64,000 nucleotides of DNA from Berberis thunbergii. Its lineage: Eukaryota; Streptophyta; Magnoliopsida; Ranunculales; Berberidaceae. Both the position numbers and the translations under genes were made by a program. The first letter of the stretch is position 1. Every line of letters begins with the position of its first letter. Of this stretch, positions 51,149 to 60,367 are shown piece after piece. Location of the stretch: assembly GCA_003290165.1 (NCBI GenBank), contig QNQO01005809.1:310001-374000 (forward strand). Reading direction: 5' to 3'. A model generated the notes under the pieces. It was not told the origin of the DNA and did not search any database. It saw nothing but the letters and a program-made list of their open reading frames with translations.

Positions 51149-52170
51149 TTGGTTCTCAAGTGAGTTCATTTTCGATTCTTGATATGGGTTTTTCCTTCTA
51201 TCTCTCACTGTTATCTTTTTGTTGTGTTAGTTTTCTGTTTTATAGTTGGTTTAAACGTTTATCATCTAGTTTCTGATCTGATTTGATATGTAGAGTTGAA
51301 TGAAATCGCTTTATACTGAAGTGGGGTTTGAAAAATCATAATTGTTCGTAATGGGTATTCGTTATTTTTCATGGGTTTTGGCTTGTTAGATCTGATTGGA
51401 TGTTAGGGTTCATTTTGATTGGGTATATGACTTGTTTTCTGAGATTTATGTGTTCTGTTTCGAGAATGTATATCTTAGTTTTCTGAGATTGTTGTCCCAT
51501 GGAAACTAGTAGGCTCAACCATAGGACTTGTTTTATTGCAAGTACATTATGTATGCACTTGATGTGTAGGACTTGAAACTGTGTGTACATTATGTATCGC
51601 GGAAATGTCAAATATTTTGTTGTATGAGCATACCATATAAAATTTTGTGTGTGAGATATGGGGTACTTATCTCTTGTTTATGATTGCAACTTTCAGAAAG
51701 TTTTGAATTGAATGATTCTTTATTGTCTGTTCTTCAGAACTGAACTCTGTCGTTTTAGTGGTCAAAAGATTTACCCTGGAAAGGGTATAAGATTTATTCG
51801 ATCCAATTCACAGGTACCATATGAACTATTTGTTTCCCAATACAAGAGTGATGTAGTTTTCTAATATGTTCGCATCATAACAATATGAAACTCTAAACAA
51901 TTTCATAAATGTAGATTTTCCTCTTTGCAAACTCAAAATGCAATAGGTACTTCCACAACCGACTCAAGCCATCGACGCTTACATGGACTGCCATGTACAG
52001 AAAGCAACATAAGAAGGTGCTTATCTCTTATAGTTGTCACCTATTCAAGTTGAATGTCATTTTTTATGTGGCATTTTATTTCTGTTTAATTTATGTAATT
52101 GGATTGAACTTGTGATGTTTGCAGGACATTACTGCAGAGGCTGTGAAGAAGAGGCGCAGGGCTACCAAGA
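51149..52170 (+). pseudogene. RPL24: 60S ribosomal protein L24 fragment
   Basis: Four exon pieces with canonical splice sites: 51149-51159 (TTG GTT CTC AA, start ATG changed to TTG), 51738-51813 (TELCRFSGQKIYPGKGIRF), 51915-52016 (IFLFANSKCNRYFHNRLK to YRKQHKK) and from 52125 (DITAEAVKKRRRATK). RPL24 is a large-subunit ribosomal protein. After ATK the expected PYSRSIVGA stretch is missing; the frame reads NHFTDGTCF instead and stops soon after. The conserved N-terminal two-thirds and introns show it derives from the genomic locus, not mRNA. The lost start codon and absent C-terminus make it a truncated pseudogene. Confidence 0.9.
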
Positions 52171-52757
52171 ATCATTTTACGGATGGTACCTGTTTTCTGG
52201 GAGTGAAAGTGCTGAAATGGGTGTGTGTAAGTGGCTTTCCAGATACTGGCATTGCTTTTACTTGACACATGGTAATCATGGATTTTGTCTCAAAGATATT
52301 GGATTTTATCAAATTCTAAAAAAATTTCAGTGGCCATCTCTCCTATAATCTTGTAGATCAATGGGTATCTCTCTTTTTTATTGAAAGAAGTTCAAATGAG
52401 TGTTTTCTGTTGTTGTTCACATGTTATACATGAAAAATCCAAATTAGTACTATAGGTCACAAGAAGTTGAAATGGGTTTCTCTTTTGATGTAGTCTTATA
52501 GGGTCAGAAGAAGTTGAAATAGATTTCTCTTTTGATGCAAGTCTTGTATATCAATAGAAGTTGAAATGGGTTTCTCTTGTTTTAAATGTATACATGAAAG
52601 AAATTTTAATGGATTTTCTTGTTATGATCTATGGATCAGGACAAGTTGAACAATGGGATGTACTATATTCTCTTGTTCATATTTTTTCATATGTATATAC
52701 ATGTTGAATGGTTTTCTCTCTTTTGTGATCTTATGGATGTTTGTTTTGTATGTACAG
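52171..52757. repeat. spacer with short imperfect tandem repeats
   Basis: 'aagttgaaatgggtttctctt' recurs in degenerate form about four times between 52390 and 52590. No exon is recognised. Confidence 0.6.
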
Positions 52758-53090
52758 ATGCAAGTTTTAAAGAGACATTGACAAGGCAAGTGCGAGCACC
52801 TGCAGTGTTCAAGTGTGTGCGAGTGACAGCCATTGACGATGGAGAAGATGAGTATGCATATATACCAAGCAATAGTGAAGATTGGTGGGCATGTGTTTAA
52901 AGGTTTTCTTTATGATCAAGGGATTGAAGGGAGAGAAGGGTTTCCAAATATATCTGATTTGCATTTGGGAGGAGGTGGTAATGGTGGTGTCAATGTCAAT
53001 GGAAGAAATGCGCCTTCTTCTTCATCTTCAGTTATTGATCCATCTGATGTCTATGCTGCAGCCTCTGGTGGTGGATTGCTTGGAGGAGCT
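52758..53090 (+). pseudogene. SHI-related (SRS/LRP1) transcription factor, second-exon fragment
   Basis: After the acceptor TGTACAG the frame reads DASFKETLTRQVRAPAVFK, then CVRVTAIDDGEDEYAY. A 4-base insertion (ATAC at 52862-52865) breaks it. In the shifted frame it continues QAIVKIGGHVFKGFLYDQG, the IGGH dimerisation domain of SRS proteins (regulators of auxin synthesis and organ growth), then a Gly/Ser-rich tail to GGGLLGG near 53090. The first exon with the RING-like zinc finger is absent from the sequence before it. It is therefore an orphan second exon with a frameshift. Confidence 0.85.
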
Positions 53091-53393
53091 ACTGCACCTC
53101 CCTTTGATTCCTTCAGTTCAGTTAAAGAGGATTCCAAGCACCCCTCCCCATTCCTTCTTCAGACATTTTTTTTAAATTTTAAACATTTAATAGGGTAGGG
53201 CGGGACGGATATTGGCCAATCCGAGTGGAGTGGTGATGGTTTCTAAAGAAAATCTGCCCCAATCCGCGGTAAATAATGACTATCATTTTTCTTTTTTGCA
53301 ATGTTGTTAATCAATTTCGGTTTTAGTATATGAAACTGATAAATTTGGATTATCAACACTCGATCTAATTTTCAATTCTAGACTGGACTACAG

Positions 53394-57717: not shown

Positions 57718-57801
57718 TTCAAGCCCTGAGTAGTTCAATCCCGACACCTCCAGCTAACTTTAGACTGAGGGAAGAACACATGTCAGGTAGTTCATTGAAA
57801 G
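57718..57801 (+). pseudogene. orphan exon of unknown gene
   Basis: An 84-base block between a good acceptor (TTTCTTGCAG) and donor (AAAG|GTAAGC) has one open frame, QALSSSIPTPPANFRLREEH then MSGSSLK. I do not recognise the protein. Its setting among captured exons on the same strand suggests it is another gene fragment. Confidence 0.5.
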
Positions 57802-59525
57802 GTAAGCTCTGCTAGTTTTATTGTATCGGTCCAGTTTTTTTTTAATAAAAAACTTGGTTGGTTGCTTAATAACAAACCCAATAAGATGAGAGCAAATGTT
57901 CATCATTTATTTTATTTATTTATGTAGCCACTAGGCTTCTGCAACTCTGCAGTCATACCTGGATCTTTTATTCTCTCATAACTAGGGCCTTTTTGTGCAT
58001 TTTAGACTGCTGTTATTAGATTGGACAGTGGCCACCATATGAAATGAAAATTTCTTTGGTGCAGATTATGTTCTTTGAGCCACCACATTTGCCGCAATGC
58101 CTTAGGTGGCTCAAATAATATAACATGTGTTCTTACTACAATCTAATAATCCTCGATTGAGCCACTTGGAAGTTTTGAAACCCACTAAGTTTATATGATG
58201 GTGATATTCTCACTTTGATATATCTTATCCTTACCAAAAAAAGATTTAACAACATCAAATAGTTGTAGCTCAATAAAATGTAGTAGATAAGATGGAGATA
58301 TTTAACATTGAAATCATTGTAAAACCAATTGGTTAGAATTTAGAAGTGGCAAGTTTTTTGGGGAAATATCAGATAAAACCAATAATATGTTAGGGAAACC
58401 AGCTTCAATTAAGTGGGTTGTTATGCTCCCAGTCGAGAGAACCAAAAAGAAAAACAAAGTCATGTTGGTATGGATGCTTTGGACATCGACAAATGGAATA
58501 AGAGCCACACAAGGTATAACACCAAAAAATTTTTGTTTCTAACTTGAAAGCTAGTGTCTGTTTGCAAAGGGACAATCTAAATTGTCAGAGACGATTGCTC
58601 TCTGGAAGTGATTGTTGCATGTGCCTGCTCTGATAGTGTTCACTTGTAGTGATTTTTTTTTTACATTTGTCACAATGAAGTTCATATAAATAGGAGAATG
58701 GCAATAACAGGGTATTCATTCATGATAACAGGGTAGTGATTTTTTGTATTCTATTGCTTATTTTATGTCTTTCGCTATGATATCTGGAACCTGAGCCAGA
58801 TGAAGGAGCAGAAAATGATGCAGATGTCAGGTTCGATTTCTTCTGTTGTACTTTATAATCTCTATTTTTTTTCATATTTATAATCTCTGTTTTTTTCATA
58901 CTAGTTTTTGTTTTCGCCGTGAGATTGTTCATGATCTAATCAGTATTGCATCTTAGTCAGTATTGCACTTTTTTTTCTCACAAACTGCATCCTTCTCCTC
59001 ATAAAAAGAATCTGAAAACATCCCTAGTGCTTTGATTTTAGCTATGGATCTAATAGAGAAAACAAAAGGCTATGGATCTAAGAGATGGGTATTTGGTTTG
59101 CAGAGCAAACTTCTTCAAGGTAAAAATTAAGGTGTGTTCCTACTTTGTCCACCTTTTTTGTTTCTTTTTTATTCTTGCCATTAAGCACTGTAATATGATT
59201 GCTGCAGTTATCTACCGCTGGTGGTAGGCTTGTCACATAATGAGCTTCCTGTTATTATGCTAACTGAGTAGCTTTTACAATTTCCCATTTTTCTTCATAA
59301 TGTGAATGTGCAGGTGTATCCTTGGAAGGCTTTTGCTATGAATCCAAGCAACAGATACTAGTCTATGAGTTGTAACATTAAGCTGGGGCCGCAGACTGTA
59401 AGCTACCCTGAGATTTTGCTTCAAGCATTAAGCATATCCATATCTCCTCTTTACATCTGTGCAATTAGCTTAAAAGTAACTAGGTATTTTTTTAAGCTAA
59501 TGTGGTATTTGCTTCATGATCTCAG
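57802..59525. other. unassigned spacer with possible exon remnants
   Basis: An exon-like piece reading EPEPDEGAENDADVR lies near 58790-58830. One at 59314-59397 sits between acceptor GTGCAG and donor GTAAGC and ends NIKLGPQT; it could be a decayed copy of the SR45 exon before VNLPRG, but it contains a stop. The rest is AT-rich with no signal. Confidence 0.4.
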
Positions 59526-60367
59526 GTTAACCTTCCGCGAGGTTATGGATATGTGGAGTTCAAAACGAGAGCTGATGCTGAAAAGGCCCTTAATTATATG
59601 GATGGTGTAAGGATAAACTACTAACTTCCTGCTTTTTATGCGAACGTGTCATTTTCTGGTAAATTAAATGGATCATTTGATGCAGGCTCAAATTGATGGA
59701 ACTATTGTTAATGCGCGGTTCACGCTACCTGCCCGAAAAAAGGTAGTCTTTCCTCCAAGAGTTGTCCCTGCTGATACAAAAAGAGAAGCTCTACAAAATG
59801 ATAGTGTTGTTGCTGATGCTGAAAAGGATGGTCCACAGAGGCAAAGAGATTGTATGTTATGGTTTGCCATAAATTTTGTGATTGAACATCTTGTGTCGTT
59901 TAATCGTTTGGGAAAAATAATTGTTTTTGAACATTGTCTGGCTTAACATATTAGCAGCTTCTCCACGGCGCAAACCTCTTTCATCACCTCGGAGGCGATC
60001 CCCTGGACCTCAACGTAGGGGTGAATCTCCTCGAAGGAGACTGTATTCTCCTCCACAGCGACGTATCGTTTCTCCTCCAAGGCGACGTGTGGAATCTCCT
60101 TATCGTCGTGGAGACACTCCTCCTAGGCAGAGGCCTGCTGCTTCTCCAATTAGAAGACGTTCTCCATCTCTGCCGCCACGGCGACATAGGTCACCACCCA
60201 CACGGTATGCTATTGACAACATCTTGTTTTTTCAGTTTGTTTTTTTAATGGAATCAGGGTTATCCAAAACAATATGATAATTCTCTTCATGACAGTGCAT
60301 CTCCTCCTCCCCGAAGGGTCCGTGGCAGTCCAATTCGTAGGCGTTCACCTCTTCCTCTAAGGTGTCG
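59526..60367 (+). CDS. SR45: SR45-type splicing factor fragment, open frame
   Basis: Four exons: 59526-59606, 59686-59851, 59958-60204, 60296-60367, all with GT..AG introns and compatible phases. They read VNLPRGYGYVEFKTRADAEK (second half of the RRM with RNP1-like GYGYVEF), AQIDGTIVNARFTLPARKK, EKDGPQRQRDSSPRRKPLSS, then an Arg/Ser/Pro-rich domain (RRRSPGPQRRGESPRRR, SPPRRRVESPYRRGDTPP). SR45/RNPS1 proteins are nuclear splicing regulators. Unlike the other fragments, no stop or frameshift is seen across 188 codons. The N-terminal RS domain, first half of the RRM and last exons are missing, so it is partial. It could still be transcribed. Confidence 0.88.

What the first reader, a model, noticed from the sequence alone, without database searches (positions are those of the whole stretch)
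51149..60367. Five unrelated host-gene fragments in a row: candidate multi-gene capture by a Helitron-like transposon
RPL24, SRS/LRP1, RFT1, ACX4, an unknown exon and SR45 pieces lie head to tail on one strand within 9.2 kb, each incomplete and each with its introns kept. Retained introns rule out retroposition, and the shared direction is what Helitron capture with read-through transcription produces (known best from maize). Segmental duplication of a single locus cannot join five separate genes. I found no 5' TC / 3' CTRR ends or terminal hairpin, so the carrier is inferred and could be a Pack-MULE or CACTA element.
Basis: partly seen in the sequence, partly recalled or inferred. Interest (0 to 1): 0.85.

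Follow-up and report, generated by a model that had tools for sequence, protein, structure and literature searches.

The report
Gene-collecting CACTA transposon, end-truncated copy
A row of broken plant-gene pieces turns out to be a damaged copy of a repeated jumping gene of the CACTA kind that carries pieces of several host genes, all pointing the same way; such elements are known, but the one-way orientation is a testable oddity.

Summary
In detail: pieces of RPL24, an SRS gene, RFT1, ACX4, an unknown exon and an SR45-like gene lie on one strand with introns kept. Multi-gene capture by a transposon is right; the Helitron is not. The region is one copy of a repeated CACTA (En/Spm) family. All 17 other copies fetched that carry the RPL24 part run on 5' of it, 15 of them to a shared CACTACACCAAAA-type end with subterminal repeats. 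The five insertions of which I read both ends each have a matching 3-bp target-site duplication. The window copy has lost both ends: 51150 cuts the RPL24 start codon, and about 170 bp are missing at ~61645. C2395:31031-42177 (11,147 bp, duplication CTT) has both ends and the same landmarks in the same order. Parent loci confirm DNA-level capture: RFT1 and RPL24 introns align with about 11% mismatches, while copies differ by 2.3%. Thirteen host genes identified in this family all read in the element's sense direction; 222 antisense ORFs scanned gave no Pfam hit. New member of a known kind (Pack-CACTA; compare soybean Tgm-Express1).

The parts
51150..61645 (+). Truncated copy of a non-autonomous CACTA (Pack-CACTA) element; 5' ~580 bp and 3' ~170 bp missing; right limit good to a few bases
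51149..51150 (+). Left truncation junction inside the RPL24 start codon; 17 of 17 other copies fetched with this segment continue 5' with element sequence; junction the same on contig C91 (99.7% over the flank)
51150..52171 (+). RPL24 (eL24) fragment: exon 1 from the second base of the start codon, exons 51738-51813, 51915-52016, 52125-52171 with introns; homology to the intron-bearing RPL24 pair on C959 ends at this right edge
52172..53170 (+). SRS/LRP1-type gene fragment (DUF702), last exon from ~52758, frame change at ~52862; both limits approximate
53289..55151 (+). RFT1 fragment; 53289-53550 and 53565-54988 align to parent C171:801214-801491 and 802329-803717, introns included; the last exon ~55032-55151 is assigned by eye from the translation and found no match in the 6 kb of parent read
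54988..54989 (+). Internal deletion junction: the C264 copy keeps ~1.7 kb more here, most of which aligns to the RFT1 parent
55750..56456 (+). ACX4 (acyl-CoA oxidase 4) fragment, exon pieces ~55750-55857 (frame change inside; by eye), ~56194-56245, 56346-56456; exons between the first and second are missing
57466..57485 (+). Boundary: matches of RPL24/RFT1-type copies stop at 57466; from 57485 on a stretch matches 14 other rows; only window, C91 and C2395 span it among 40 scored rows
57718..57801 (+). Exon of unidentified gene (VQALSSSIPTPPANFRLREEHMSGSSLKG) with canonical splice signals, by eye
57843..61627 (+). 3' part shared at 95% with the complete element on C10112, which has a different 5' half
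58780..60368 (+). SR45-like fragment: RRM exon ~59526-59606 and following exons ~59686-59853, ~59958-60206, ~60297-60368 (SR-rich)
61490..61645 (+). 3' subterminal repeats of the CACTA element (GCCACGGCTTAAAACCGTGGC units), cut before the terminal inverted repeat
61646..61667 (+). Right junction; this 22-mer also occurs at 7694-7715; from 61661 a block that duplicates 7005-9315; identical on C91

Best explanation
The region is a doubly truncated, hence probably immobile, copy of a Pack-CACTA element: a transposon with CACTA ends and subterminal repeats, in which no transposase domain was found and whose interior is pieces of unrelated host genes. Shown: family ends, 3-bp target-site duplications, repetition through the genome, a relative with both ends and the same landmarks (C2395), parent loci for RFT1 and RPL24 with aligned introns, a later internal deletion, and exchange of 5' and 3' halves between elements. 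Inferred: a transposase supplied in trans moved the copies by cut and paste; new DNA was acquired when neighbouring elements with compatible ends were mobilised as one unit or joined by aberrant end repair, so pieces accumulated stepwise; sense-oriented pieces survive preferentially because they can be spliced within a chimeric transcript.
For: Genome hits of the 9.2-kb query: 64 rows. 15 of 17 other RPL24-type copies fetched reach a common 5' terminus (12 CACTAC, 1 CACTAT, 2 CACCAC) with CCACGG/CCGTGG repeats; in L019/L020 the match stops ~190 bp short of it. Both ends with matching duplications in 5 of 5 insertions where I read both: C9054 TCT (the same insertion on C797 agrees), C10112 ACA, C6661 TAT and C133 TTC, C2395 CTT. 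The 576-bp 5' end matches in full at 40 of 40 scored candidates. 53 RFT1-fragment rows and 3 parent-like rows among 71. Parent alignments. Boundary in the window. No Pfam transposase among 450 ORFs scanned. 24-bp relics of the 5' inverted repeat away from any end at L009 9286 and L023 8048 (oriented coordinates), 24/24 and 22/24 matches.
Against: The window copy has no terminus of its own, so its status rests on relatives. Only landmarks and end stretches of C2395 were seen, not its whole length. No CCACGG/CCGTGG subterminal motif lies between the window's fragments except within SR45-like coding sequence, so tandem joining is not visible there. Which of the two half-sharing element types is derived is not shown. 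No autonomous partner was sought. No empty site was compared. Nothing here shows transcription.
Confidence: 0.95

Rival explanations
1. A Helitron captured the fragments by rolling-circle transposition.
For: Several genes in one direction with introns, as in maize Helitrons, which capture gene fragments stepwise (PMC3288121, abstract and passages).
Against: Family ends are CACTA inverted repeats with 3-bp duplications; no convincing Helitron 5' or 3' end around the region.
Confidence: 0.02
2. A Pack-MULE captured them.
For: Pack-MULEs also carry gene fragments (recalled; named in PMC1947982, abstract).
Against: Inverted repeats are about 13 bp, duplications 3 bp, ends begin CACTA; no long inverted repeats bracket the region.
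Confidence: 0.01
3. The mosaic arose as filler DNA or segmental duplications at one locus and is not itself a mobile unit.
For: The window copy lacks both ends, and its right edge carries a 22-mer found elsewhere in the neighbouring repeat, which looks like repair filler.
Against: Parts of the mosaic in the same order recur in dozens of loci, several with different flanks, termini and target-site duplications. Repair may explain how this one copy lost its ends, not how the mosaic formed.
Confidence: 0.02

Closest known systems
Tgm-Express1, soybean CACTA element in wp (Zabala and Vodkin; PMC1947982: abstract and passages seen)
   Same: CACTA superfamily; five unrelated host gene fragments with exons and introns in one element; all five are spliced into transcripts of the host gene, which implies one shared direction (my inference).
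   Different: 5.7 kb, described at one locus in what I saw, against a repeated family of 7.5 to 12 kb elements with exchanged halves here; transcription is shown there and untested here.
Pack-CACTA / Pack-TYPE elements (PMC8903248, passages; PMC13317346, passages; Catoni 2019 not held, known only through these)
   Same: Non-autonomous CACTA ends around coding DNA from several loci; maize Pack-CACTA carry the most distinct loci of the classes compared there; capture by re-mobilising tandem insertions proposed.
   Different: Here multi-gene elements share halves in different combinations, and every host gene identified points the same way; I saw no statement on gene orientation within elements in the passages read.
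Tpn1 family of Japanese morning glory (PMC5105172, passages)
   Same: 339 non-autonomous CACTA copies, average 7 kb, nearly all with 3-bp duplications, subterminal repeats, captured genic interior.
   Different: Tpn1 subterminal repeats are 122-bp and 104-bp tandem units; those here are short CCACGG/CCGTGG motifs. Species here unknown, no sequence compared.
Maize gene-capturing Helitrons (PMC3288121, abstract and passages)
   Same: Stepwise capture of several genes; elements joined by nesting.
   Different: Different transposition chemistry and ends.

Membership tests
CACTA (En/Spm) superfamily | Terminal inverted repeats starting CACTA | tested here: met
   Family: 15 of 17 fetched RPL24-type copies at the 5' end (12 begin CACTAC, L023 CACTAT, L013/L015 CACCAC) and 5 of 5 insertions followed to the 3' end. 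The window copy itself lacks both ends.
CACTA (En/Spm) superfamily | 3-bp target-site duplication | tested here: met
   TCT, ACA, TAT, TTC, CTT: 5 of 5 insertions with both ends read.
CACTA (En/Spm) superfamily | Subterminal short repeats in both orientations | tested here: met
   GCCACGG/CCGTGGC repeats at both ends; in the window at 61490-61645.
CACTA (En/Spm) superfamily | TnpD-type transposase in autonomous members | tested here: inconclusive
   No transposase domain among 450 ORFs of the copies examined, as expected of non-autonomous members; no autonomous partner was searched for.
Pack-CACTA | Captured host-gene DNA inside CACTA ends | tested here: met
   Parent loci of RFT1 and RPL24 align with introns.
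Helitron | 5' TC, 3' hairpin plus CTRR, insertion between A and T, no duplication | tested here: not met
   Scan of the whole window, both strands: no supported pair near the region; CACTA ends with duplications in relatives.
Pack-MULE | Long inverted repeats and about 9-bp duplications | tested here: not met
   No long inverted repeats bracket the region; 3-bp duplications in relatives.

The most novel reading that the evidence does not exclude
This CACTA family acquires or keeps host gene fragments only in the sense direction of the element: 13 of 13 identified host genes, none antisense. That would mean capture is coupled to transcription or splicing (or antisense captures are quickly purged), turning the old question of how Pack elements gain genes into one that can be tested by strand counts genome-wide.
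Probability: 0.4. Interest if true: 0.6.

Novelty: new member of a known kind. Interest (0 to 1): 0.45.

Why it matters
It shows one plant transposon family carrying pieces of at least 13 host genes and sharing halves between multi-gene elements. Such copies are easily mis-annotated as genes, and the one-way orientation gives a concrete handle on how Pack elements acquire DNA.

Tried and rejected
Helitron ends and bracketing inverted repeats or CACTA pairs inside the window gave nothing, because this copy is truncated at both sides. The PDB search for RFT1 found nothing. I first thought the window's combination unique to it and its C91 counterpart; one search showed a third spanning copy (C2395). 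I then took 57485-57843 as part of the C10112 type; one search shows that C10112 matches only from 57843, so the 14 rows are of unchecked context. Counts from the genome search are floors, since only the best candidates are scored (31 of 3093, 40 of 4503, 40 of 701); C2395, for example, is missing. Several locus pairs look like the same insertion on two contigs (L010/L011, L013/L015, L017/L018, L019/L020, L026/L027, window/C91), so independent insertions are fewer than rows. Selection on the captured RPL24 piece: exons are not slower than introns among 14 copies (1.8% against 1.1% from consensus; 37 non-synonymous and 20 synonymous differences; five rows dropped as second copies of the same insertion). 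The normalised ratio of 0.50 there would point the other way but ignores transition bias, so I claim no constraint, weakly. A first comparison script printed nothing and was redone. In one search exon 2 was translated one base out of frame; one search corrects it. Parents of ACX4, SRS and SR45 were not found: the ACX4 search did not complete, the others were not sent. My notebook puts the 22-mer a few bases off; one search has the right places. The strand scan covered more of L009, L023 and L024 than is proven to lie inside elements; the 13 genes counted exclude those three loci (ABC1 kinase and a reductase-like piece in L009, both sense). Raffinose synthase (6e-4) was not located and is not counted.
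Full report
What is there. Translation of the region and family searches confirm incomplete pieces of RPL24, an SRS/LRP1-type gene, ACX4 and an RRM/SR-type (SR45-like) gene; RFT1 is weak in Pfam but aligns to the genome's own RFT1 locus. With an unidentified 84-nt exon they lie in the stated order on the + strand, with introns. Frames are broken: SRS shifts frame near 52862, ACX4 in its first exon piece, and ACX4 and RFT1 lack internal exons. The stated end (60367) is only the last recognisable coding part; the mobile unit runs to about 61645.

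It is a repeat. The window is C5794:310001-374000 of a 2.24-Gb genome in 11,732 contigs. The 9.2-kb stretch gave 64 rows: the window, a near-identical copy on C91, and partial copies 93-99% identical. C91 shares the left flank (99.7%) and the right junction (100% over 501 bases) and is probably the other haplotype. An RFT1 family search gave 71 rows, of which by my count 53 are the captured piece (profile start 34-39) and 3 at the same profile position look like the parent gene or its alleles (C171, C2026, C6469).

The carrier. All 17 fetched copies carrying the RPL24 segment (L009-L025) continue 5' of window position 51150 with one shared sequence. In 15 of them it ends, about 580 bp upstream, at CACTACACCAAAA or a close variant, followed by GCCACGGTTTTAAACCGT-type subterminal repeats; in L019/L020 the match stops ~190 bp short. 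The 3' end reads ...TTTTTGGTGTAGTG or a close variant. Where I obtained both ends, the 3 bases beside them match: C9054:3950-11475, 7,526 bp, TCT; C10112, 11,997 bp, ACA; C6661, 9,810 bp, TAT, and C133, 10,571 bp, TTC; C2395:31031-42177, 11,147 bp, CTT. These are the marks of CACTA, not of Helitrons or MULEs. The 576-bp 5' end matched in full at 40 of 40 scored candidates, a floor.

The window copy. It starts inside the RPL24 start codon and stops within the 3' subterminal repeats, so it has no terminus. Both junctions recur on C91, so an assembly slip is unlikely. The right junction holds a 22-mer that also occurs at 7694-7715 inside the duplicated repeat block, as repair filler might. C2395 carries the same landmarks in the same order at similar spacing, with both ends: 5' end, RFT1 piece, the 57237-57843 stretch at 98% and the last 0.76 kb at 91%. 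I did not read its whole length.

Capture happened at the DNA level, and early. Window 53565-54988 aligns with the parent RFT1 locus over exons and introns with 150 mismatches in about 1,334 aligned bases. The C264 copy retains about 1.7 kb more here, most of it aligning to the same gene in order, so the window lineage has lost it by deletion. The RPL24 piece aligns with a tandem pair of intron-bearing RPL24 genes on C959 from 24 bp before the start codon to a sharp edge in exon 4, with a stretch of intron 1 unaligned (68-70 mismatches in about 634 bases of the main block). Both parents thus differ by about 11%, whereas copies differ from each other by 2.3% on average (19 rows including second contigs of the same insertion). 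In relative terms the captures are four to five times older than the spread; I give no years because the species and rate are unknown.

Elements share halves in different combinations. The C10112 element shares about 165 bp at its 5' end with the RPL24 type but window 57843-61627 of its 3' part. C6661 and C133 have the RPL24-type 5' half and other genes behind it. In the window the RPL24 type reaches 57466: six contigs (C437; C556, C217, C520, C8222, C490 with RFT1 rows) match up to there, while 17 further rows match about the same 215-230 bases without such context checked, so that stretch is also a dispersed repeat. From 57485 to 57843 another stretch matches 14 rows whose context I did not read. 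Three of 40 scored rows span the whole: window, C91, C2395. So 5' and 3' halves have been exchanged between elements that both carry host genes; which type is derived is not shown. Elsewhere, 24-bp relics of a 5' end without its subterminal repeats sit beside gene pieces (L009, L023), as expected if tandem elements were joined; I did not prove that they lie inside their elements.

Direction. I cut stop-to-stop ORFs from both strands of the window copy and of the unique parts of other copies and scanned them against Pfam at E 0.001: the 150 longest of 203 sense and the 150 longest of 199 antisense ORFs, then all 78 sense and 72 antisense ORFs from further stretches. Sense gave eL24, DUF702, Acyl-CoA_dh_M, sulfate transporter, PWI, WD40, OPT (4.8e-5, below its cut-off), TOP6A/Spo11 (2e-4, below its cut-off), bZIP (4e-6), ABC1 kinase (L009) and two borderline hits (DXR 9e-4, raffinose synthase 6e-4). 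Antisense gave none of 222. Two consecutive plasma-membrane H+-ATPase exons are added by PDB hits (L021, L018), and RFT1 and SR45 by the evidence above. The DXR and bZIP ORFs are placed in L036 by eye from the translations, where further DXR-like residues lie in a second ORF. Counting only genes in the window or in element types with both ends shown: window/C2395 type five (RPL24, SRS, RFT1, ACX4, SR45), C6661 three (WD40, DXR, bZIP), C133/C9054 type three (sulfate transporter, PWI, H+-ATPase), C10112 two (OPT, TOP6A): 13 of 13 sense. If directions were random, twelve agreeing with the first has probability 2^-12, about 2e-4. Cautions: three of the 13 rest on weak hits, adjacent pieces might have been taken together, and elements share ancestry. 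Paper searches for CACTA with orientation terms and one for Helitrons did not bring up a report of this bias for CACTA in what I saw; that is no proof of absence. In soybean Tgm-Express1 all five pieces are spliced as exons of the host transcript (abstract), which implies the same.

How it works. Transposition in trans by a CACTA transposase is inferred from ends and duplications. Acquisition by joint mobilisation of neighbouring elements is the published proposal for Pack-CACTA (passages of PMC8903248 and PMC13317346); the shared halves, the end relics and a reversed CACTA 3' end lying 380 bp upstream of the element on C6661 fit it. Why only sense pieces are seen is open: splicing of sense exons may make the element harmless and keep it transcribed, antisense pieces may trigger small RNAs and be lost, or the elements may enter or leave genes in one direction.

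Novelty. Pack-CACTA elements with several genes are known. This is a further family of them, with halves exchanged between multi-gene elements and a strong, testable orientation bias; hence a new member of a known kind.

Noticed in passing
window 7005-9315 and 61661-64000: Direct duplicate, 96% identical, of a block of 110-155-nt tandem units containing GGGAATCGAACCCATGC-like motifs reminiscent of a tRNA-derived SINE (the likeness is recalled); it abuts the right truncation of the element.
   Followed up: partly
window 17430-19431/23979-25962, 26345-27036/33196-33888, 9839-10301/15501-15960, 39637-40217/45799-46363: Four LTR-like repeat pairs (94, 93, 85 and 82% identical), so much of the window looks like LTR retrotransposons.
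   Followed up: no
window 35971-37162: Possible short CACTA-like element: CACTACACCAAAATGG at one end, CCAATTTGGTGTAGCG at the other, with a palindrome at 36855-37159.
   Followed up: no
window 57237-57466: A ~215-230-bp stretch inside the element that recurs in 23 other rows, many with ends at the same places: probably a short dispersed repeat; no inverted repeats found at its edges.
   Followed up: partly
own genome: 81 rows for the RPL24 part that the window lacks: besides gene-like copies (tandem intron-bearing pair, intronless copy), most rows stop at or before residue 37 and are roughly 75-92% identical, suggesting that another RPL24 piece has also been amplified.
   Followed up: no
L009 9286 and L023 8048 (oriented coordinates): 24-bp relics of the CACTA 5' inverted repeat without subterminal repeats, beside captured gene pieces.
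   Followed up: partly
L025, oriented 7484-9488: An LTR related (84%) to the window LTR at 17430 lies right where this copy of the element stops matching, probably a later insertion.
   Followed up: no
L013 1514-1895: Reversed 3' end of another CACTA copy within 400 bp upstream of the complete element on C6661, a near-tandem pair.
   Followed up: no
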